The notes under the pieces: model-generated | The model's database searches: none | What the model was told of the DNA's origin: nothing | What the model saw: only the letters and a program-made list of their open reading frames with translations | Part shown: in pieces, positions 41,286 through 52,483 of the stretch | Layout: each line of letters begins with the position of its first letter | Numbering within the stretch: position 1 is the first letter of the stretch | Program-made: the position numbers and the translations under genes | NCBI GenBank assembly: GCA_009786075.1 | Contig: WQTX01000002.1 | Location: 1-64,000, forward strand | Length of the DNA stretch: 64,000 nucleotides | Origin: Bacteroidota bacterium | GTDB taxonomy: Bacteria; Bacteroidota; Bacteroidia; Bacteroidales; UBA1715 | Reading direction: 5' to 3'

Positions 41286-41325
41286 ACCTCGTTTCCTTGT
41301 CTCCTATTCCCTTGTTCCCTAATTA
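41286..41325. repeat. Interspersed repeat (CCTTGTCTCC family)
   Basis: ACCTCGTTTCCTTGTCTCCT and TTCCCTTGTTCCCTAATT lie between the mqnA and cas2 stops. Relatives occur at 54985-55050, 57466-57549 and near 58490 and 30690. Confidence 0.7.
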
Positions 41326-41664
41326 AAACAATTCCAATTGTTGCCACCCCACTTGTTTTTCTTTTTCCTTTTTGCCATAAAATATTTCCATATTGCCAAA
41401 CTGCTTGTCGGTTACACATAAAATGCCCACATGCCCGTGTTCGGGAAGAGCGTTTTTTATGCGTTTCATGTGAACTTCGGCATTTTCCATACTTGGGCAG
41501 TGGCGCAGATAGATTGAAAATTGAAACATTGTAAAGCCGTCTTTGAGCATGGTCTTACGAAAATCGGAAGCCACTTTGCGCTCTTTTTTCGTATCGGTTG
41601 GCAAATCAAAGAACACAAGCACCCACATAACTCTATATTGATTTAAACGTGAAGAAAGTTCCAT
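41323..41664 (-). CDS. cas2: CRISPR-associated endonuclease Cas2
   Basis: A 113-residue ferredoxin-fold protein with the family pattern RVMWVLVFFDLPTDTKKERK (the DLP aspartate), then FRKTMLKDGFTMFQFSIYLR and HCPSMENAEVHMKRIKNALP. With Cas1 it forms the complex that inserts new spacers. It is the last gene of the cas group, 82 bp after cas1; the gap holds a strong hairpin. Size and motifs fit Cas2 of type II-C systems. Confidence 0.95.
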   Translation of the reverse strand: MELSSRLNQYRVMWVLVFFDLPTDTKKERKVASDFRKTMLKDGFTMFQFSIYLRHCPSMENAEVHMKRIKNALPEHGHVGILCVTDKQFGNMEIFYGKKEKEKQVGWQQLELF

Positions 41665-41694
41665 TTTGTTATATTTTTTGTCATTCCCATTGTG

Positions 41695-41741
41695 GCTTCG
41701 AGAGCCTCAGCCACCGCACCGGACGCTGAGGCTCTCGAAGC
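41695..41741. repeat. Perfect palindromic element between cas1 and cas2
   Basis: GCTTCGAGAGCCTCAGC and GCTGAGGCTCTCGAAGC are perfect 17-bp arms with a 13-nt loop. In the transcript this strong hairpin would separate cas1 from cas2. It is one of the palindromic repeat families scattered in the window. Confidence 0.9.
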
Positions 41742-41746
41742 GTGTT

Positions 41747-42682
41747 TTATGGTAACTCAGGATACTTTATTTTCCGTGTTTCTCCTGCAAAACATTGATA
41801 CAACGAAGCCGTAGTTTGTGCCACAGCCAATGCCAACGGACTCATTCTACCGCCAATCATAACATCCATATCAGGAATTCGCAGTAATTCGGCTTTGTAC
41901 TCAATCGTTAGTTCTTCGGGAATTACGCCTTTATCAGCCATTGCAAATACGATTGTATCAACAAATGGACGGTATGGTTCCATAATATCGTCAGCCAAAC
42001 AATAGGCATTGTAGCGATTGTGATGATGAATACCTAACGTGGGCAAAAGTCCACTACTTACTAAGGCTCGTGCCACAATTGCCCGCAAAATCGCATAACC
42101 ATAATTCAATAAATTATTTGGCGCAATGCCCTCTCTATCTCGTGTGAAATTTTCGACTTGCGGAAATGCTTGACTCCAATAATATGCTGCCGCACGAGCC
42201 TCGTAATTATCGGGGTCGCCGCTACGCACTTCGTTTGCCCAATGTTGCATATTTTTTATGTTGCACTGTCGGAATTGTTTCAAAACTTCGGCTTGATTTG
42301 TAATTTTTGCTTTTATGGTTTGTTGCCATAATTGTTTTTTAAGCGGTTCGCTCGCCGAAAGTTGTTCCCGAAACCGTTCATTTTGCGTAGTATTTCCGCA
42401 CAGCGGCAACATCAATCCAACGGGCATTCGGCGACTATCGCAGGTTATGATTGCAATATTATTATCTAACAGTTTTTCGATTAATCCGTGCGTAATGGTA
42501 ATTTGTTTATGGTCTAAAACTACCACGCCCACGTCCTCTACCGGCAAAGTTTTTTCATTGTTTCGTTTGAATGCTTCCGAAACAGTGTCGTTCTTTTCCA
42601 CTTCCGGTAGTTTGACAACGATTTGCTCGTTGCGCAAACTCAGGTAGGTGGGATTGCCGAAATAGAGGGTTTTCTTAATCAT
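41747..42682 (-). CDS. cas1: CRISPR-associated integrase Cas1 (type II)
   Basis: A 311-residue Cas1 with beta-rich N-terminal domain (TLYFGNPTYLSLRNEQIVVK, DHKQITITHGLIEKLLDNN) and helical catalytic domain. Metal ligands fit Glu161 (NYEARAAAYYW), the His cluster at 219-221 (TLGIHHHNRYNAYCLADDIM) and Asp231/232. It integrates spacers together with Cas2. Its ATG overlaps the rhuM stop by 8 bp (ATGATTAA), so translation is probably coupled to the RhuM-family gene. It fits the compact type II branch of Cas1. There is no csn2 or cas4, hence type II-C. Confidence 0.96.
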   Translation of the reverse strand: MIKKTLYFGNPTYLSLRNEQIVVKLPEVEKNDTVSEAFKRNNEKTLPVEDVGVVVLDHKQITITHGLIEKLLDNNIAIITCDSRRMPVGLMLPLCGNTTQNERFREQLSASEPLKKQLWQQTIKAKITNQAEVLKQFRQCNIKNMQHWANEVRSGDPDNYEARAAAYYWSQAFPQVENFTRDREGIAPNNLLNYGYAILRAIVARALVSSGLLPTLGIHHHNRYNAYCLADDIMEPYRPFVDTIVFAMADKGVIPEELTIEYKAELLRIPDMDVMIGGRMSPLALAVAQTTASLYQCFAGETRKIKYPELP

Positions 42683-43727
42683 TTTTCAGTTGTTTTACTT
42701 GGGTTTCTAATCGAATAAATTTATCGTAATCGCTCTCGAATAATTGGTCTTGAATAATGCGATATTTTTCAAATTCGCTTTCGGCAAAAGATTTTGCAAT
42801 TTCGTGCGTAATTTTTCCTGCATCGGTCAAAATTTCCTCTTCATTAAATTTCAAAAAAGCGTCCAATCGTTTTTTCCAATCTTCCATAGTCATAGGAATT
42901 TTCCGGAGTGTTTGATATTCTGCATAATCAAGATACATCGTTACAATTCTCTGCAAATTGTCCAACTCTTCTATTTCCAAATAGTTTTTTGCTATCGCCA
43001 CATCATATTTTTGAATTTTCCCATCGGGAAATCCCTTCCAAGAAGTAAGTCCCATAAATGGTTTTGTGTGATTTGCCCGTTGTGTTATCAATTCGGCGGC
43101 GGTGTTTCCGTGAATGGCAAAATGCAATTTATTTTGAACGGTGGCAAAAAATGTTTTCGTGGTTTTTGCTGTTATATCGTAATCCAAAGCCGTTGCATAC
43201 AAATCGGTAATTTTTTGATAAAATTTTCGTTCCGAAATGCGGATTTCCCGGATTTTTTCGAGTTGCTCTTCAAAATACTTTTCGGTCAAAATAGAGCCGC
43301 CGTTTTTCAATCGTTCCACGTCCATTACCCAGCCTTTTATTGTGTAATCTTTTACAATCGCGTTTGCCCATTTGCGAAATTGCACGGCACGGTCGTTGTT
43401 TACTTTGAAACCGACTGCGATAATCATTTGAAGATTATAATGTTCAATTTCTCTCGAAACCTGCCTATTTCCTTCGTTTTGAACTATAAAGAATTTCTTT
43501 ACAGTTGCCCCTTCGCTCAGTTCTTTGTCTTCTAATACTTTCTTAATATGTTGCCCTATTCCCTGAACAGTTATGTCATAAAGCGTAGCCAACATTTTTT
43601 GCGTAAGCCAAATGTTTTCGTCTTCGTAGCGCATTTCTACGCTTTGTGGGTTGTCGCCGGTGGCGGCTACGAATGTTAGGTATTCGGCTGCGGAGGAGCG
43701 GATTGATATTTCGGGTTGCTTTTTCAT
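42675..43727 (-). CDS. RhuM-family protein embedded in the cas operon
   Basis: A 350-residue cytoplasmic protein of the RhuM family, first named from a Salmonella pathogenicity island and without known biochemistry. Hallmarks: MRYEDENIWLTQKMLATLYD (predicted DNA-binding-like N-terminus), VQGIGQHIKKVLEDKELSEG, REIEHYNLQMIIAVGFKVNN and RAVQFRKWANAIVKDYTIKG. The C-terminal half is helical, with WKGFPDGKIQKYDVAIAKNY and a coiled end. Its ATG overlaps the cas9 stop by 4 bp (ATGA) and its stop overlaps the cas1 ATG by 8 bp, so it is cotranslated with both. A role in adaptation or in guarding the locus is inference only. Confidence 0.92.
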   Translation of the reverse strand: MKKQPEISIRSSAAEYLTFVAATGDNPQSVEMRYEDENIWLTQKMLATLYDITVQGIGQHIKKVLEDKELSEGATVKKFFIVQNEGNRQVSREIEHYNLQMIIAVGFKVNNDRAVQFRKWANAIVKDYTIKGWVMDVERLKNGGSILTEKYFEEQLEKIREIRISERKFYQKITDLYATALDYDITAKTTKTFFATVQNKLHFAIHGNTAAELITQRANHTKPFMGLTSWKGFPDGKIQKYDVAIAKNYLEIEELDNLQRIVTMYLDYAEYQTLRKIPMTMEDWKKRLDAFLKFNEEEILTDAGKITHEIAKSFAESEFEKYRIIQDQLFESDYDKFIRLETQVKQLKND

Positions 43728-46700
43728 AATGCCGGTTTAATGTTTCCTAAACGGTCGATATTGAGTTTGATACAAACATCTTTTATTTGTTTCCCTTCAA
43801 AACTTGCCGTTTTTGTATCATAAGAGCCTGAAAGTTTATTTTTCTTCGTATCAAAGTTCAAATCAACTTCTTTCGGTACAATGTTTTTTGCCAAACGGTT
43901 TGGCGTAAAATAGCACGTGCCGCTGAAATCATTTACAACGAATAATCTTTGTAACTGCTCTTTGCTCAAATTTTCCCAATCTATCGCACGAATATTTTCT
44001 TTTTCGTCTTCCATTGGGACATACACCAAATCGTTGGGAGAAAGAAACGGACATTCGAGACATAATTTATGCCCTTCTTCATTCGTTTCCGGAACAACAT
44101 TTAAACCTTGTTTCAATCGCTCTATAACAATGTTTAAAGGGATAGTTTCATAAGAACGTTTTATTACATTTTTGTTTTCTTTCTTATCAAATTCCTCGTA
44201 TTCATAAATTGCAAAAAACAAGTTTGGTGCACCTTGTACATATTTACTTTTCTTATTTCCTAAATTTCCTAAGACAAATCTTCCTTTTCCTTTCTCGTAA
44301 ACACGTACTTTTAATATTGGTTGATGGAATTTTCCATCATTGTATTGTGAAATATTTTTATTTAACTCTTCAATTCCATCGGGAGAAAAAGCCAATTCTG
44401 AATTATTTTTTTTACTTTGAAGGTAATTTTTTAGAATTTTTTGAATGCCGGTATCAGTTATTTTCTCAATTTTATCTTCATTAAAACTTTTATCCAAAGC
44501 TTTTCGAGTTGCTGTAGTAAATTCTCCTTTGCCAACTTTTACCCAAGGCAATTGTACAATTCCCGAAAATGTTTCTTCGTGCAAAGGCTTACGAATTCCC
44601 CAATTTCTATTGTTTGATTTTTCTTTACTTTCTTTATAAGTCAAACCTGCAAATTTTACTTTATTTATCACTCGTAAATTCTGCTTAAAACTCACTATGA
44701 TTTTCTCAAGTTCTGATTTAGCCTGTTCAACAAAATTATTCCAAGGCATAAAATACTCTTTGGGAACTTCTATTTGCTTTGTTATTTGTTTTCCGGTTTC
44801 ATCTTTTTTTATTCGCCAAATGCCGGTTTCATCTTTTTTTTGTATCGTTTTTTCAATTGTTTCGTATTTGCGTAATGTTTTTGCAAGCCCTTTTTGTAAA
44901 TGAAATTTCTGCGATTTTGCATTTTCATTGTTCAAATATTGAACGTGTTCGCGTGTCATACACGCAATTGTCAATGCGTCCATTGCGTGGTGTCGGTGGT
45001 CAATGCGTTTCTTTTGAAAACCTTTTGAAAATTCTAACGGTATCGTAGGAATTATATGTCCTTCTGTATTTTTTGAAGTGAATGTATCAGTGCCTTTTAA
45101 TTCATTCATTCGTTCAAAACGAGGTAAAATCAATTCATTCCACACATTATTTAATCCCCAACTTTGCTTTAATGTAGTTGTAATTTTTCCATTTCCCGAA
45201 ATAAGATTTTTTGAATTTACACCGTCATCATCTTTTTCTTCTCTAACAATATTTGACAAAAGGGCAGAAACGAACTTACTTATATATCGAGTGTCATTGA
45301 GTTGCCGTTCAATCATTTTATCGGGAATTTCTTCCAATAAAAGTTTTTTCTGCTTAGCATTGTTGTTTTTATAATGTTCTTGTACAAAACTTTTATAACT
45401 TTCTTCCGTAAAAATTTCAATAACAACACCCATTCCACATTCCACTTTCTCGCCAGTGTGTTTTTTTATAAATTCAAGTCCAAGATTGCGGTCTTTCAAT
45501 TTATTGACAGCCGCTTCGCAAATCACTTTATTGCTTAAACTATCGTCAAAATAACGACTTTGCGGAATAATGTGTTCTATTTCGTAATCGGGTGTAAATA
45601 ATCTGCTTAATGAAATCATTTTTCCCGTATAAGGCGAACAATATTTTTGTTCGAGCCATAATTTATATTTTTGAATTTGTGTTTTAGTTGGTTGAGATTT
45701 TTTTGAAATATCATAATACGTAATTTCTTTTTCCTTGCCTTTATCGTCTTTCTCTATTAAACCGGTTTTTTCGTTTTTCAATTCTTGCTCGGAATATCTG
45801 CGCAAAACATCTTCTTCATAAATTTTCAAAATATCTTGCTGATTTTGAGAATATGGTCTTACAGTATTTTCGTTATTCTCATTGTTAAAATAACCATCTT
45901 CTGCAAATTCCATTAACATTGCTTTGATACGCAAATTTGTATTTTCATTATCAGAAACTTGATTGGTAATTTTAGCACGGTCATCTGCCGTGTTTTTCAT
46001 TTCACGACCAAGTTCTATGTGAATTTCGTCGAAAAATTTGCCGTAACTTTTTACATTCTTCTTTTTTTTCTCATCATAAATTTCGATACATTCAACGTTA
46101 TTTTCCGACGCATACTGTTCCCAAATATCTTTTACAACACGCAAGGTTTCTGTAATAATTTGTTCTACTATTGGATTTCGCAATGAATGTTGTTTAAATT
46201 CGTCCAAATAATCTTGAATATCATAAGACATTTTCCATTGGTCTGCATTTTCTGTTTCCGAATGACGACCATAAACAATGTATTGCGCCAACCACAATTG
46301 CAATCCTTGGAAATCATTTTCGGAAGACAGTTTAATTGCTTTTTCTCGAACGCGCTCTTTTATAGTTTCGTCATATTCGCCTGTAATAATTTTTTCTATT
46401 CTGCCTTGTGTTTCAAACGTAATGTTTTCCCATTTCCAATATTTCCCCAAACGCATCAAAGGCAAGAGTTTTTTTATTGCCTTTTCGGAAAATGAGCCGT
46501 AATCTTTTTCTTCAAATAGTAATTTTTTGAAATTATCAACAAACGAAACTTCGTGTAAGTTATGTTTAACGGCAAAAGTTTTCAATGCCTTTTCATATTC
46601 GTTTTTGTCGGTAACCGAATAAATTATGTGCCAAAGTTTTTGTTCGATTTCGGGTGTAAGAAAATCCAAGGGGAGATTTTCAACTTTTGCTAATCGTGAA

Positions 46701-48616
46701 ACAAACTGTGCTCTTGTTTTATTACACGGATATTTTTTTGATTTATCTTCTTCTTTATCTTTTGAATTATCGAAAACGTAATTCCAACGATATTTTTTTA
46801 ATTCTTTATCTGCATTTTTCCCTTTTATTCCCTGCAAATTCAGAAAATAAGTTATCAATGCTTTATTGTCAATTTCTTTTCTGTTCATCAAAAAATCAAA
46901 CAAATTTGTATAATCATCTGTGGATTTAAGAAAATCAGCAGTAACATCTTTGTCGTCTTCTCTCGAATAAATTTTGAGATTATATAGCCATTGCCAAATT
47001 CTAAATTCTTGATACAAAGGATTTGACTTTGGAATACCTTTTAAATATTCTTTTATCTCTTTCCCGTCTTTGTCTTTGTACTTTCTAAATTCCAAAGTGC
47101 AATTTCCAATTGATGATTTTTGACTTCGCAAAGGTCGCTGGTAAAAAATAATGTCATCGACAAACAGATGTTCAAAACTATTTCGTTTGCTCAAAATAGT
47201 TTGGTGTGCCTCGTTGTTGCGATACAATTCCCGAATGCAATCGTTGTACAAATCTTCGGTAAAAAGTTCGGGCTGAAGTTCAATTTGCTTTTTCACAATT
47301 GCTTTCAATTCGTCTTTGTAAAATTTTCGTTCAATAGTACGAACTAATTTCCCTCGGATTTTTTGTGTCGGATTTTGTAATAAAGTTTCGTAAATGTATG
47401 CCCCGACAGTACCTTTTATTTTGTTTTTTTCTTCATACTTTTCAATATATTTATCTAAATCATTTTCCGTTTTCTTTTTCAATAAAGTCCAGTCATCTTC
47501 ACTTGGCGCACGAAAAGAACGCTTTTCTGTACCTTCTTTGTCGGTTTTTACAGTTTTATCATCGTTCAAATCAGTTGTAACAATAAAATCACGCACCTTG
47601 TTTTTCCAATCAAACAGAGATGTTTTGCTCGAACGGCGATAAATCCAACCATTTTCCAAAATCAGAGAATACCAAACATCATCTTTTTTCTTTTCAGTAT
47701 CTTCTTGAACATCAACAATTTTTAAATCACAAATTTCAACAGATACATCTTTTTTCTTTTTAATTGCAGCAGTTTCATTCTCTTTGAGCATATAAATACT
47801 GCGTTTATTTGTTCCGTCAATTTCCTTTTTAGGCGTTTCGTCAAAGTTCAAATATGTAGTAACAACAAATTTTCGTTCCGTGTCTTTCCATTCAAACAAG
47901 TTGTTGTTAGTTTCGTAACGATATTCCATACCATTACTCAACATCATTTTATAAGCAACATCTGCTTTTACATCAATAATTTTCAACGAATGAAATTCTA
48001 CCAATTTATTTTGATTTTCTTCTTCCTCCTCGCCACGAAGTTGGTAATACCCTCGCTTTTGATTGAAATTCAGCAAAAGCCAAGCCAACTCCTCTTTTTC
48101 AATTTTCCGAGAAAGGGCTTTTTTGCGTAAATAATAAATAGTCCAATCGTAAGGAATTTTTATGTCTTGACCGTTTGACTTGAAATCTTCAACCATTTCG
48201 TTGAAAGAATTTTGAAAAATAAATTCAAAATCATTCTTATTTTTTTGTTTGTTCCATACTTTATTCCACGCAATTTTCGGTTCAGTTTCATTCAAAAATT
48301 GACCTAATCGTTTTTCAAAATCAATCTGATTAGCATAATGTTCGGGCAAAAATCCAAAAATATTTAACACACGATGCAAGCGTTCGCGACGAAGTAAATT
48401 TCGTTCTCGCAATCGTCTTGTTCCGCGATAATCTGTGCGTGTTGCCGTTTGCGAAACAGAGTTTCCTTTGTCAAATTCGCCCATTATAGCAGCGTCCATT
48501 GGAATAATCCGACTTCCAAGTCCAAGTATTTTCCCCTCTTTTTTATCGAAATCATTTTCGATTAACGCCCAACCGATTGAATTTGTTCCTAAATCAAGTC
48601 CTAATATCTTTTTCAT
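43724..48616 (-). CDS. cas9: Cas9, large type II-C CRISPR effector nuclease
   Basis: A 1630-residue RNA-guided nuclease. RuvC-I is ILGLDLGTNSIGWALIE (Asp8), the Arg-rich bridge helix is RRLRERNLLRRERLHRVLNI (68-87), RuvC-II is IHIELGREMKN (Glu868), the HNH domain has DYEIEHIIPQSRYFDDSLSN (His1015, with Glu1014 where many Cas9s have Asp) and RuvC-III is RHHAMDALTIAC (Asp1213). All catalytic positions are therefore filled. It is much longer than usual type II-C proteins; part of the excess is a tandem duplication at residues 210-281 and 297-376. It is first of the minus-strand group cas9-rhuM-cas1-cas2, with the tracrRNA divergently upstream. Confidence 0.97.
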   Translation of the reverse strand: MKKILGLDLGTNSIGWALIENDFDKKEGKILGLGSRIIPMDAAIMGEFDKGNSVSQTATRTDYRGTRRLRERNLLRRERLHRVLNIFGFLPEHYANQIDFEKRLGQFLNETEPKIAWNKVWNKQKNKNDFEFIFQNSFNEMVEDFKSNGQDIKIPYDWTIYYLRKKALSRKIEKEELAWLLLNFNQKRGYYQLRGEEEEENQNKLVEFHSLKIIDVKADVAYKMMLSNGMEYRYETNNNLFEWKDTERKFVVTTYLNFDETPKKEIDGTNKRSIYMLKENETAAIKKKKDVSVEICDLKIVDVQEDTEKKKDDVWYSLILENGWIYRRSSKTSLFDWKNKVRDFIVTTDLNDDKTVKTDKEGTEKRSFRAPSEDDWTLLKKKTENDLDKYIEKYEEKNKIKGTVGAYIYETLLQNPTQKIRGKLVRTIERKFYKDELKAIVKKQIELQPELFTEDLYNDCIRELYRNNEAHQTILSKRNSFEHLFVDDIIFYQRPLRSQKSSIGNCTLEFRKYKDKDGKEIKEYLKGIPKSNPLYQEFRIWQWLYNLKIYSREDDKDVTADFLKSTDDYTNLFDFLMNRKEIDNKALITYFLNLQGIKGKNADKELKKYRWNYVFDNSKDKEEDKSKKYPCNKTRAQFVSRLAKVENLPLDFLTPEIEQKLWHIIYSVTDKNEYEKALKTFAVKHNLHEVSFVDNFKKLLFEEKDYGSFSEKAIKKLLPLMRLGKYWKWENITFETQGRIEKIITGEYDETIKERVREKAIKLSSENDFQGLQLWLAQYIVYGRHSETENADQWKMSYDIQDYLDEFKQHSLRNPIVEQIITETLRVVKDIWEQYASENNVECIEIYDEKKKKNVKSYGKFFDEIHIELGREMKNTADDRAKITNQVSDNENTNLRIKAMLMEFAEDGYFNNENNENTVRPYSQNQQDILKIYEEDVLRRYSEQELKNEKTGLIEKDDKGKEKEITYYDISKKSQPTKTQIQKYKLWLEQKYCSPYTGKMISLSRLFTPDYEIEHIIPQSRYFDDSLSNKVICEAAVNKLKDRNLGLEFIKKHTGEKVECGMGVVIEIFTEESYKSFVQEHYKNNNAKQKKLLLEEIPDKMIERQLNDTRYISKFVSALLSNIVREEKDDDGVNSKNLISGNGKITTTLKQSWGLNNVWNELILPRFERMNELKGTDTFTSKNTEGHIIPTIPLEFSKGFQKKRIDHRHHAMDALTIACMTREHVQYLNNENAKSQKFHLQKGLAKTLRKYETIEKTIQKKDETGIWRIKKDETGKQITKQIEVPKEYFMPWNNFVEQAKSELEKIIVSFKQNLRVINKVKFAGLTYKESKEKSNNRNWGIRKPLHEETFSGIVQLPWVKVGKGEFTTATRKALDKSFNEDKIEKITDTGIQKILKNYLQSKKNNSELAFSPDGIEELNKNISQYNDGKFHQPILKVRVYEKGKGRFVLGNLGNKKSKYVQGAPNLFFAIYEYEEFDKKENKNVIKRSYETIPLNIVIERLKQGLNVVPETNEEGHKLCLECPFLSPNDLVYVPMEDEKENIRAIDWENLSKEQLQRLFVVNDFSGTCYFTPNRLAKNIVPKEVDLNFDTKKNKLSGSYDTKTASFEGKQIKDVCIKLNIDRLGNIKPAL

Positions 48617-48663
48617 AAAATGTGGTTTTTCAAAATATTCTCGTAAAAATATGAAAATATTTT

Positions 48664-48692
48664 TTGTAGCAATAAAAAAACGATTATTTTTG
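48664..48692 (+). promoter_or_regulatory. Promoter of the tracrRNA
   Basis: TTG at 48664 and TATTTTTG at 48685 are 18 bp apart, close to TTG-N19-TAnnTTTG. The predicted transcript start (about 48697) falls at the first base of the anti-repeat. Confidence 0.75.
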
Positions 48693-48696
48693 TGCT

Positions 48697-48773
48697 TGAA
48701 AGGAATTCACAATAAGGATTATTCCGTTGTGAAAACATTTAAGTTGCCTCGTCTTACAATACGGGGCTTTTTT
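48697..48773 (+). ncRNA. tracrRNA
   Basis: The stretch TTGAAAGGAATTCACAA (48697-48713) is identical to part of the plus-strand CRISPR repeat and thus complementary to the 5' part of the crRNA repeat: an anti-repeat. It is followed by a nexus-like hairpin (AAGGATTATTCC, then GTTGTGAAAAC) and ends in a terminator hairpin GCCTCGT/ACGGGGC (48745-48767) plus a T-run. It has its own promoter. Being only about 77 nt, with the anti-repeat at the predicted 5' end, it would need no 5' trimming. It lies between cas9 and the array, on the strand opposite to both. Confidence 0.9.
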
Positions 48774-48791
48774 GTGGAAAAAATAGAAACA

Positions 48792-48819
48792 AAAAATCCC
48801 GACATCAATCGGGATTTTT
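48792..48819. terminator. Bidirectional terminator between tracrRNA and array
   Basis: AAAATCCCGA and TCGGGATTTT form a stem with an A-run on the left and a T-run on the right. On the minus strand it would stop transcripts leaving the array toward cas9; on the plus strand it backs up the tracrRNA terminator. The remaining 48820-48897 holds AT-rich sequence without a recognised feature. Confidence 0.75.
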
Positions 48820-48897
48820 GCATTGAAAACGTTCGTTTTTTTAGAATTCTAATTTTTGACGTAATTGATTGAAAATCATTTGCTTTATCGCATGTAT

Positions 48898-51626
48898 GTT
48901 GTTTTCAATGTGTCAAAGATACTAATTTGAAAGGAATTCACAACAGCTAATATCTTATTAGCACTATGTTTAAAGTTGTTTTCAATGTGTCAAAGATACT
49001 AATTTGAAAGGAATTCACAACTCTTCCGAAATTTCATCTAAAATATACGGGTTGTTTTCAATGTGTCAAAGATACTAATTTGAAAGGAATTCACAACACT
49101 ATAAAAGCCTCTAAAAAATCGCCAAATGTTGTTTTCAATGTGTCAAAGATACTAATTTGAAAGGAATTCACAACACACTATGGCGCAAATCGTACGGGTA
49201 GATGGTTGTTTTCAATGTGTCAAAGATACTAATTTGAAAGGAATTCACAACCAATGGGATTGATATAGCAGCGCCAGTTGGGTTGTTTTCAATGTGTCAA
49301 AGATACTAATTTGAAAGGAATTCACAACCAATTCCAGAAACGTTTAAAACATCGTTGGTTGTTTTCAATGTGTCAAAGATACTAATTTGAAAGGAATTCA
49401 CAACATGAATTCGTCTCTTCCAATTAATTCTGGAGTTGTTTTCAATGTGTCAAAGATACTAATTTGAAAGGAATTCACAACATATAACGACACAAAAATT
49501 TCAGCGGTTTCGTTGTTTTCAATGTGTCAAAGATACTAATTTGAAAGGAATTCACAACAAACACACGCAGAAAGTTATTTGAATGAAAGTTGTTTTCAAT
49601 GTGTCAAAGATACTAATTTGAAAGGAATTCACAACCGCTCAAAGATTGACACAATACAAAAAACAGTTGTTTTCAATGTGTCAAAGATACTAATTTGAAA
49701 GGAATTCACAACATTGTTTCGTTAGCAATTTGATTGTAGTTTGTTGTTTTCAATGTGTCAAAGATACTAATTTGAAAGGAATTCACAACATACTCTTGCC
49801 AAAGTCAAAAATCAGGCGGGTTGTTTTCAATGTGTCAAAGATACTAATTTGAAAGGAATTCACAACAGCTTGTGCGATTTCATAATGGCGCTCATGGTTG
49901 TTTTCAATGTGTCAAAGATACTAATTTGAAAGGAATTCACAACTTATATCCGTAAACTTCAAAATAATTATTAGTTGTTTTCAATGTGTCAAAGATACTA
50001 ATTTGAAAGGAATTCACAACAAGGTAGTAATAATGGTATATCAGTGAGAGGTTGTTTTCAATGTGTCAAAGATACTAATTTGAAAGGAATTCACAACGGG
50101 TTTTGGCGGCATTTTAAAAATGTCAAGTTGTTTTCAATGTGTCAAAGATACTAATTTGAAAGGAATTCACAACGAGTTGTTCTATTTCTTCAAATAAACA
50201 TTCGTTGTTTTCAATGTGTCAAAGATACTAATTTGAAAGGAATTCACAACTATGATAACTTTCATAAAAATACTTAAAAAGTTGTTTTCAATGTGTCAAA
50301 GATACTAATTTGAAAGGAATTCACAACTTAGAGGGTCCTCAACTTTTGAAAATTTAGTTGTTTTCAATGTGTCAAAGATACTAATTTGAAAGGAATTCAC
50401 AACTCGCTCAAATCAAATAATGATTTATTAAACGTTGTTTTCAATGTGTCAAAGATACTAATTTGAAAGGAATTCACAACTATAAACGCAGGTGTAAAAT
50501 TTTAATAAAGTTGTTTTCAATGTGTCAAAGATACTAATTTGAAAGGAATTCACAACTAAAATGAATAATGCTTGTTCCATAGGTCGTTGTTTTCAATGTG
50601 TCAAAGATACTAATTTGAAAGGAATTCACAACATAAACGGGTATTGTACGTTTAACCTTTTGTTGTTTTCAATGTGTCAAAGATACTAATTTGAAAGGAA
50701 TTCACAACACACCATCGACAAAGGGCTAGAGAACACAGTTGTTTTCAATGTGTCAAAGATACTAATTTGAAAGGAATTCACAACGGTCTGTGCCGTCAAC
50801 GTAAAAATTAGCTTGTTGTTTTCAATGTGTCAAAGATACTAATTTGAAAGGAATTCACAACCAGGAGCTTCCCAACCTTCAAATTTCCCTAGTTGTTTTC
50901 AATGTGTCAAAGATACTAATTTGAAAGGAATTCACAACTATGTATGCTTCTTTAAATAGTTTTTTCAGTTGTTTTCAATGTGTCAAAGATACTAATTTGA
51001 AAGGAATTCACAACTGCCTGTACCATTCCCAATCGTCACGTAAGTTGTTTTCAATGTGTCAAAGATACTAATTTGAAAGGAATTCACAACCAAAAACAAT
51101 TATCACAGGAATTACGAGATGTTGTTTTCAATGTGTCAAAGATACTAATTTGAAAGGAATTCACAACTGTGTATTGCTCTACTTGTGTGTTTGAAAGTTG
51201 TTTTCAATGTGTCAAAGATACTAATTTGAAAGGAATTCACAACCTGCAATTCGTGGTTTTGCTCGTTGTTTTGGTTGTTTTCAATGTGTCAAAGATACTA
51301 ATTTGAAAGGAATTCACAACACCTCGTCCATTGCGTTGTCGGCTTCGGTCGTTGTTTTCAATGTGTCAAAGATACTAATTTGAAAGGAATTCACAACTTG
51401 TAAAGTTCTACCAAATTTTTAATCCAGTTGTTTTCAATGTGTCAAAGATACTAATTTGAAAGGAATTCACAACAGTTCGTAATCTAATCCTTGCGGACGC
51501 GGGTTGTTTTCAATGTGTCAAAGATACTAATTTGAAAGGAATTCACAACCAACCTGTTGTCTGCCATATTTGAGGCTCGGTTGTTTTCAATGTGTCAAAG
51601 ATACTAATTTGAAAGGAATTCACAAC
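48898..51626 (-). CRISPR. Type II-C CRISPR array, 36 repeats of 47 bp, 35 spacers
   Basis: I counted 36 repeats of 47 bp, identical as far as read, starting at 48898, 48975, 49051 and so on to 51580, separated by 35 spacers of 29-30 bp. The plus-strand repeat starts GTTGTTTTCAATGTGTCAAA and ends AAAGGAATTCACAAC. Since the plus-strand tracrRNA must pair with the crRNA, crRNAs come from the minus strand, starting GTTGTGAATTCC. Neither terminal repeat is degenerate. The right end lies 22 bp from the recO stop codon, leaving no visible leader. No spacer was noticed to match another part of the window by eye. Confidence 0.98.
51580..51626 (-). promoter_or_regulatory. Promoter within the CRISPR repeat (rightmost of 36 copies)
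   Basis: In crRNA orientation repeat positions 2-4 are TTG and positions 24-31 are TATCTTTG, exactly 19 bp apart, an exact fit to the Bacteroidota consensus TTG-N19-TAnnTTTG. A start 5-8 bases after the box falls in the last dozen bases of the repeat, so each transcript would carry a short 5' repeat tag, one spacer and the following repeat. The same element is in all 36 repeats. Confidence 0.75.
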
Positions 51627-51648: not shown

Positions 51649-52347
51649 TCACCGAAATACCGCCTCCAAAATCCCCAAAGTGCGAGTCATATCTATTTTT
51701 TTTGTGTGCAGCGAATAATATTGTAACAGAATTTGCAACAATTCTCGCCGTTCGCCGGTGGTAATGAGCGAAAAACGTTTGGCAAGCGCATCGCTTAGTG
51801 TTCTGCTGCAATTGGTGGTGCAGGTTGTGGCGGAAGAGTATGCCACAAAACTGCCTTTTGCAATATCGAAAAAACGCAAACTTTCGCAGTAATTATTTTG
51901 CGGAGCAATGCCGCACAAAATGCTGAAATCGAGCAAAAAAGCAATATGCGCATTGTTGCACGGTTCGGTGTGCGTGTCAAGTGTAATTACAAAATTGCGC
52001 AAAAACGCATACACTTCTTGGTTTTCTTCCTTGTTGGAAAATGTGTGATACAAAAATTCGCTCACAAACAAAGCAATAGTCGATTTTTGAATTGACTGAT
52101 GCAACGAAACCGGTACGTAGGAAAATGAAATTTCCTTAATACGGCTCAAACTCGATTTTGCATTGCAATAATACTCAAAATTGACCACCTGCAAAGGTTG
52201 GAAAAATGCCGCTTGCGACCGTTTACTGCGGGCATTACCGATAATAAACGATGCAATACCTTCGTGCCGCGTGTAAATGTGAACAATAAAACTTGTTTCG
52301 GAATATTTTATGCGATGCAAAACAATTCCTTCGGTTTTTTTTAGCAT
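51649..52347 (-). CDS. recO: DNA repair protein RecO
   Basis: A 232-residue protein with the RecO pattern: N-terminal OB fold (TEGIVLHRIKYSETSFIVHI, YTRHEGIASFIIGNARS) and helical C-terminal domain (NNAHIAFLLDFSILCGIAPQ). RecO anneals DNA and helps load RecA. The zinc Cys set of some RecOs is not evident. The CRISPR array starts 22 bp after its stop on the same strand, so recO transcripts could run into the array. Confidence 0.88.
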   Translation of the reverse strand: MLKKTEGIVLHRIKYSETSFIVHIYTRHEGIASFIIGNARSKRSQAAFFQPLQVVNFEYYCNAKSSLSRIKEISFSYVPVSLHQSIQKSTIALFVSEFLYHTFSNKEENQEVYAFLRNFVITLDTHTEPCNNAHIAFLLDFSILCGIAPQNNYCESLRFFDIAKGSFVAYSSATTCTTNCSRTLSDALAKRFSLITTGERRELLQILLQYYSLHTKKIDMTRTLGILEAVFR

Positions 52348-52483
52348 AACGCAAATTCTCCTATTGTTCTATATTTTTTTACCATACAAACAAAAATACA
52401 CTTTTTTTATATATCTCAATTCTATTTTGTACTTTTGTAAATAAATAGATTTTTAGATACAAGACTTATAGACACAAGACACT

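What the first reader, a model, noticed from the sequence alone, without database searches (positions are those of the whole stretch)
48898..51626. Every CRISPR repeat carries a perfect Bacteroidota promoter in crRNA orientation
Seen: in the minus-strand repeat, TTG (2-4) and TATCTTTG (24-31) are exactly 19 bp apart, matching TTG-N19-TAnnTTTG, in all 36 repeats. Neisseria type II-C arrays are known to have promoters within repeats that make RNase III dispensable, but with a sigma-70-type box. Here the extra length of the 47-bp repeat could house a Bacteroidota-type promoter. Inference: each spacer is transcribed from its own start with a short repeat-derived 5' tag.
Basis: partly seen in the sequence, partly recalled or inferred. 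Interest (0 to 1): 0.85.

Follow-up and report, generated by a model that had tools for sequence, protein, structure and literature searches.

The report
Promoter box inside every CRISPR repeat
Each repeat of this bacterium's CRISPR memory bank contains the promoter motif typical of its phylum, and the motif is conserved in related bacteria, so each stored virus memory is probably copied into RNA from its own start signal; this was known in principle for related systems but not with this motif.

Summary
All 36 repeats (48898-51626) are identical and, on the minus (crRNA) strand, read TTG(2-4)-N19-TATCTTTG(24-31). Being identical, they count as one observation, p about 0.001 by shuffling. In 82 distinct 44-50-nt type II-C repeats of Bacteroidota, 59 carry TTG-N17-21-TAnnTT[T/A][G/A] on the crRNA strand, against 4.4 expected and none on the other strand. 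The box is the top motif of the repeat tail. Its TA..TT core changes less than its neighbours or its own 'nn'. Repeats of type I arrays from the same phylum lack it. Here the box lies outside the 17-nt anti-repeat. There is no leader promoter into the arrays; most arrays run toward the leader, where many end in a terminator about 75-80 bp past the last repeat. Best reading: an intra-repeat promoter of the Bacteroidota primary-sigma type, with crRNAs starting near repeat nt 36 (12-nt tag). No transcript was observed. Intra-repeat promoters are known for II-C and were already proposed in Flavobacterium from the TTG alone; the -7 box and its conservation appear new.

The parts
48898..51626 (-). 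Type II-C CRISPR array: 36 identical 47-bp repeats, 35 spacers of 29-30 nt; crRNA sense on the minus strand, 5' end at 51626
51623..51625 (-). -33-like TTG (repeat nt 2-4) of the 5'-most repeat; same place in every repeat (repeat start+43 to +45)
51596..51603 (-). -7-like box TATCTTTG (repeat nt 24-31) of the 5'-most repeat; same place in every repeat (repeat start+16 to +23)
   Evidence: conservation
51591..51591 (-). Predicted transcription start (repeat nt 36, A) in the 5'-most repeat; predicted 12-nt 5' tag AUUGAAAACAAC (inferred from box at -12 to -5)
   Evidence: inference
48914..48921 (-). -7-like box TATCTTTG in the leader-proximal (last, 3'-most) repeat 48898-48944
48820..48897 (.). 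AT-rich leader on the 3' side of the crRNA-sense array (acquisition end by analogy with II-C); no TTG-N17-21-TAnnTTTG pointing into the array in any of 79 loci tested, this one included
48792..48819 (-). Intrinsic-terminator-like hairpin on the crRNA strand, 78 bp past the last repeat
48664..48692 (+). Predicted tracrRNA promoter TTG-N18-TATTTTTG, same type as in the repeat
48697..48778 (+). Predicted tracrRNA; anti-repeat 48696-48712 pairs with repeat nt 2-18 (17 bp), ends before the box; terminator-like hairpin 48746-48767
43724..48616 (-). cas9 (1630 aa; RuvC_III, HNH_4, bridge helix; TIGR01865)
42675..43727 (-). RhuM-family gene (PF13310) between cas9 and cas1
41747..42682 (-). cas1 (type II Cas1, TIGR03639)
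41323..41664 (-). cas2 (TIGR01573)
51649..52347 (-). recO, co-directional; its stop is 22 bp before the first repeat, so there is no room for a conventional upstream promoter; possible source of read-through
52391..52398 (-). TATTTTTG box preceded by TTG at N18, upstream of recO: candidate external promoter whose read-through is the main rival

Best explanation
Each 47-bp repeat of this type II-C array carries a promoter for the phylum's primary sigma factor: -33 TTG at nt 2-4, 19-nt spacer, -7 box TATCTTTG at nt 24-31. RNA polymerase starts near nt 36 of every repeat and runs through the next spacer toward the leader, giving a pre-crRNA made of a ~12-nt tag, one full spacer and the following repeat. 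The tracrRNA, predicted to start from the same kind of promoter exactly at its anti-repeat, pairs with nt 2-18 of that following repeat, and Cas9 (with or without RNase III) defines the 3' end. Transcripts that leave the array are stopped by a hairpin terminator in the leader. Shown: sequences, spacing, phylum-wide conservation, absence from type I repeats, array direction, leader terminator. Inferred: sigma factor use, start site, tag, downstream processing.
For: (a) 59 of 82 distinct long repeats carry TTG-N17-21-TAnnTT[TA][GA] on the crRNA strand against 4.4 after tail shuffling and 0 antisense; 34 carry the strict TTG-N18-21-TAnnTTTG against 0.5. (b) An exhaustive gapped 6-mer search of the tails (nt 19 on) returns variants of this box as top motifs; down-weighting related tails leaves 16.3 of an effective 23 against 2.7+/-1.1. 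(c) Between nearest relatives TA..TT changes at 0.11 per site, against 0.26-0.27 in flanking tail and 0.24 at the 'nn' (p=5.5e-5 against the rest of the tail; p=0.019 against nn). (d) Spacing from TTG is 18-21 in 55 of 57. (e) 0 of 24 type I repeats of the phylum have TAnnTTTG on either strand. (f) In this window the box is outside the anti-repeat: complementarity is nt 2-18, and the tail does not pair stably with the tracrRNA. (g) In most loci crRNAs point toward cas2 or the leader; 42 of 79 have a terminator on the crRNA strand, mostly 75-80 bp past the last repeat, against 1.4 shuffled, and 0 of 79 have a strict leader promoter into the array. (h) In 34 arrays whose leader-distal repeat is damaged, damage sits in the anti-repeat head (0.31 per site) and not the box (0.01); the box is intact in 32. 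(i) Prior work: II-C repeats carry their own promoters and acquire spacers at the 3' end; F. columnare and F. psychrophilum array transcripts.
Against: No transcription data for this organism. About a fifth of the long repeats have no recognisable box at the expected spacing (18 of 81), notably the Mucilaginibacter/Sphingobacterium group (TTCTTTGA). Relatedness is only partly removed by the weighting; no tree-based test was run. The TTG is inside the conserved anti-repeat, so it is not independent evidence. The preserved tail of damaged first repeats includes the 3' part beyond the box (also 0.01), so it is polarity, not box-specific, and truncated copies often lose the TTG (18 of 34 have none at N16-22). 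In some relatives gapped anti-repeat complementarity reaches nt 23-27, the start of the box.
Confidence: 0.8

Rival explanations
1. The array is transcribed as one long pre-crRNA by read-through from outside (here from recO, 22 bp upstream and co-directional) and cut by RNase III at each tracrRNA duplex; the box in the repeat is not used.
For: recO has a candidate promoter (TTG-N18-TATTTTTG, 52398) and ends 22 bp before the first repeat; RNase III is encoded.
Against: By inspection of the table, roughly 40% of the long-repeat loci with enough flanking DNA have their nearest upstream gene on the opposite strand, and strict promoter-like sites 90-300 bp upstream of the first repeat occur in only 6 of 60 loci, so it cannot be the general mode; it leaves the conserved, strand-specific, correctly spaced box unexplained.
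Confidence: 0.1
2. The conserved tail motif is a recognition element of the Cas1-Cas2 integrase (ruler anchor within the repeat), and its likeness to the phylum's promoter is coincidental.
For: Repeats must be recognised for spacer insertion; the motif sits near the repeat centre at a fairly constant distance from both ends.
Against: The pattern TA-nn-TT is that of the phylum's -7 box with variable nn, and its spacing from TTG is the promoter spacing. It is kept in 32 of 34 damaged leader-distal repeats, where integration does not occur. In other phyla II-C repeats carry that phylum's -10 box instead (own knowledge; promoters in repeats cited).
Confidence: 0.06
3. The box works at the RNA level (crRNA 5' handle or folding) rather than as DNA.
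For: The whole tail, not only the box, is preserved in the leader-distal repeat.
Against: In this window the tail pairs poorly with the predicted tracrRNA (-5.8 kcal/mol against -24.5 for the head) and the repeat alone folds weakly (-4.3); the pattern of constraint is that of a promoter box.
Confidence: 0.04

Closest known systems
Neisseria meningitidis / Campylobacter jejuni type II-C arrays with a promoter in each repeat (Zhang 2013; Dugar 2013, 2018, as cited in PMC8092290, PMC12080349)
   Same: Array read toward the leader, no leader promoter, a promoter-like box in every repeat, short crRNAs expected from each spacer
   Different: There the box is sigma-70-like at the 3' end of a 36-nt repeat (own knowledge); here it is the Bacteroidota TAnnTTTG box in mid-repeat of a 47-nt repeat, clear of the anti-repeat, so the predicted start is in the repeat and leaves a ~12-nt tag and a full spacer
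Flavobacterium columnare II-C array (Hoikkala 2021, PMC8092290) and F. psychrophilum Fp2Cas9 array (PMC10309648)
   Same: Repeat-embedded promoter proposed in the same phylum, with TTG at about -33 and transcription toward the leader
   Different: They named only TTG; F. columnare has 36-nt repeats and eight mapped reads. TAnnTTTG was cited for cas9, not for the repeat
Riemerella anatipestifer CRISPR1 (47-nt II-C repeats, PMC5006608)
   Same: Same repeat length, same 16-nt anti-repeat type, ~107-bp leader
   Different: The authors reported no promoter in the repeats and put it in the leader; they used the BDGP neural-network promoter predictor
Bacteroidota primary-sigma (sigma-ABfr) promoters (B. 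thetaiotaomicron dRNA-seq PMC7366714; F. psychrophilum TSS map PMC9723704)
   Same: TAnnTTTG at -12 to -5 and an element near -33
   Different: The -33 here is GTTG, not TTTG, and the promoter is embedded in a CRISPR repeat

Membership tests
Type II-C CRISPR-Cas | Cas9 with RuvC, bridge helix and HNH | tested here: met
   PF18541, PF16593, PF13395, TIGR01865
Type II-C CRISPR-Cas | Type II Cas1 and Cas2; no csn2 or cas4 in the operon | tested here: met
   cas1_NMENI TIGR03639, cas2 TIGR01573; the only extra gene is RhuM-family
Type II-C CRISPR-Cas | tracrRNA with anti-repeat | tested here: met
   17-nt perfect anti-repeat 48696-48712 with terminator-like hairpin downstream
II-C arrays with intra-repeat promoters | Promoter motif of the host phylum in each repeat, in crRNA sense, conserved in relatives | tested here: met
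II-C arrays with intra-repeat promoters | No leader promoter; array reads toward the leader | tested here: met
II-C arrays with intra-repeat promoters | Transcription starts in or just after each repeat | not testable with these tools
   needs dRNA-seq or 5' RACE
II-C arrays with intra-repeat promoters | crRNA function without RNase III | not testable with these tools
   RNase III gene is present
Bacteroidota primary-sigma promoter | -7 box TAnnTTTG | tested here: met
   TATCTTTG in all 36 repeats
Bacteroidota primary-sigma promoter | -33 TTTG | tested here: inconclusive
   GTTG: TTG matches at -34 to -32, first T does not

The most novel reading that the evidence does not exclude
Across Bacteroidota, long-repeat II-C arrays turn every spacer into its own transcription unit driven by a primary-sigma promoter that the longer repeat places clear of the tracrRNA-pairing region, so crRNAs start inside the repeat with an 8-13-nt tag and a full spacer, and the leader serves as the terminator rather than the promoter.
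Probability: 0.65. Interest if true: 0.6.

Novelty: new variant of a known kind. Interest (0 to 1): 0.52.

Why it matters
It would explain how the long-repeat II-C arrays of a whole phylum are expressed although their leader is at the wrong end for a promoter. It gives a single-base prediction (crRNA 5' ends about 5 nt after TAnnTTTG) that existing or new 5'-end RNA-seq can test at once, and it contradicts a published statement that such repeats lack promoters (PMC5006608). It also matters practically: minimal repeat-spacer units of these systems should express themselves in Bacteroidota but not in E. coli.

Tried and rejected
Csd1 as a source of control arrays: one hit in 198 genomes; replaced by Cas3 loci. 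Preserved box in damaged first repeats as proof of selection on the box: rejected as proof because the rest of the tail is equally preserved. Predicted +1 base as evidence: 39 of 57 purine, too weak. 36-nt repeats as independent evidence: rejected because their box lies within anti-repeat complementarity where that could be aligned. Two paper searches for CRISPR repeats with the phylum's promoter box: five papers hold TAnnTTTG and CRISPR, none describing it in a repeat as far as read; the library holds only open-licence papers.

Full report
Observation. The array at 48898-51626 has 36 identical 47-bp repeats and 35 spacers of 29-30 nt; none of the repeats occurs elsewhere in the genome. The crRNA strand is the minus strand: a perfect 17-nt anti-repeat (48696-48712) pairs with repeat nt 2-18 when the repeat is read GTTGTGAATTCCTTTCAAATTAGTATCTTTGACACATTGAAAACAAC. 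On that strand TTG (2-4) and TATCTTTG (24-31) are 19 nt apart. Because the copies are identical they are one observation; a shuffled repeat shows TTG-N18-21-TAnnTTTG on either strand with p=0.0014. That is suggestive, no more.

Setting. The locus is type II-C: Cas9 (43724-48616), Cas1 of the type II family, Cas2, plus a RhuM-family gene between cas9 and cas1. The 5' end of the array in crRNA sense is 22 bp from the recO stop, so there is no ordinary room for an upstream promoter; recO itself has a candidate promoter and could read through. The other end is AT-rich and carries a terminator-like hairpin on the crRNA strand 78 bp past the last repeat. The tracrRNA, on the plus strand, has TTG-N18-TATTTTTG upstream; with published geometry (box at -12 to -5, PMC9723704) it would start at 48697, exactly at the anti-repeat, and therefore cannot pair with the box at repeat nt 24-31.

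Comparative test. Cas9-based sampling in 395 genomes of the phylum and 395 of the class, plus 80 named Bacteroidota loci, gave 82 distinct repeats of 44-50 nt and 24 of 36 nt. Arrays were found from repetition alone, so the box did not bias the sample. In the tail (nt 19 onward) an exhaustive search of gapped 6-mers returns TCTTTG, GTAnnTTT, TAnnTTTG and TAnnTTTA among the top motifs. TAnnTT[TA][GA] occurs in 64 of 81 tails; with related tails down-weighted it is 16.3 of an effective 23, against 2.7+/-1.1 expected and 0.3 on the opposite strand. The complete element TTG-N17-21-TAnnTT[TA][GA] occurs in 59 of 82 against 4.4 (tail shuffled), none antisense; the strict form in 34 against 0.5; type I repeats of the same phylum have it in 0 of 24. 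Spacings from TTG(2-4) are 18 to 22, mode 19. Among 33 independent nearest-relative pairs, TA..TT changes at 0.11 per site, against 0.24 for its nn and 0.26-0.27 for the rest of the tail. Six more repeats without that arrangement have TTG(9-11)-N19/20-TAnnTT (6 of 24, against 2.5 expected, p=0.026), and 14 of 24 36-nt repeats have TTG(9-11)-N19-TAnnTT or GATATT at their 3' end. In the 36-nt repeats that region is likely tracrRNA-paired, so it is not independent evidence.

Direction. In most long-repeat loci the crRNAs point toward cas2 across a leader of about 108 bp. Forty-two of 79 loci have an intrinsic-terminator-like hairpin on the crRNA strand within 200 bp past the last repeat, mostly 75-80 bp from it, against 1.4 in shuffles; none of 79 has a strict promoter pointing from the leader into the array, and only 6 of 60 have a strict promoter-like site 90-300 bp upstream of the first repeat. 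By inspection of the table, the nearest upstream gene is on the opposite strand in roughly 40% of the long-repeat loci with enough flanking DNA. Read-through or leader promoters therefore cannot be the general source of transcripts.

Damaged first repeats. Where the leader-distal repeat is imperfect (34 arrays with a box), the damage lies in nt 1-18 (0.31 mismatches per site) and hardly in the box core (0.01) or the stretch after it (0.01); the box is intact in 32 (endpoints). This matches the published bias of such mutations to the first 15 nt and the suggestion that the extra repeat must keep its promoter (PMC12080349). I treat it as consistent, not decisive: the region beyond the box is equally preserved, and truncated copies often lose TTG.

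Mechanism and novelty. The best reading is a primary-sigma promoter in each repeat, a start at nt 36, a 12-nt tag, one spacer per primary transcript, tracrRNA pairing with the next repeat, and a terminator in the leader. Intra-repeat promoters in II-C are established elsewhere (cited) and were proposed for F. columnare and F. psychrophilum from the TTG alone. For the 47-nt repeats of R. anatipestifer they were reported absent. The -7 box in the long repeats, its conservation, and in this window its position outside the anti-repeat, are what this analysis adds; I found no paper in the library that describes it. Transcription itself remains unshown here.

Noticed in passing
48792-48819 (-) and L059-L229 leaders: 42 of 79 Bacteroidota II-C leaders hold a hairpin terminator on the crRNA strand, mostly 75-80 bp past the last repeat (32 also on the opposite strand), including this window where the array-cas layout differs.
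   Followed up: partly
43724-48616 (-): Cas9 of this window (1630 aa) carries a tandemly duplicated segment of about 75-85 aa around residues 215-380; alignments to relatives break at residues 219 and about 306.
   Followed up: partly
42675-43727 (-): A RhuM-family gene (PF13310) sits between cas9 and cas1, overlapping both; its role in the operon is unknown.
   Followed up: no
41323-51626: Array lies upstream of cas9 and co-directional with it, whereas in most relatives it lies beyond cas2 and is convergent.
   Followed up: partly
L051, L054, L055: Three species of one genus have 36-nt repeats that differ at nt 13 and at nt 23-24, the latter being the nn of TAnnTTTG at nt 21-28 (TAGATTTG, TAATTTTG, TAGTTTTG).
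   Followed up: no
L060, L072, L181, L186 and others: Leader-distal repeats are often cut from the 5' side, with endpoints clustering at nt 13-18, i.e. removing the anti-repeat-pairing head.
   Followed up: partly
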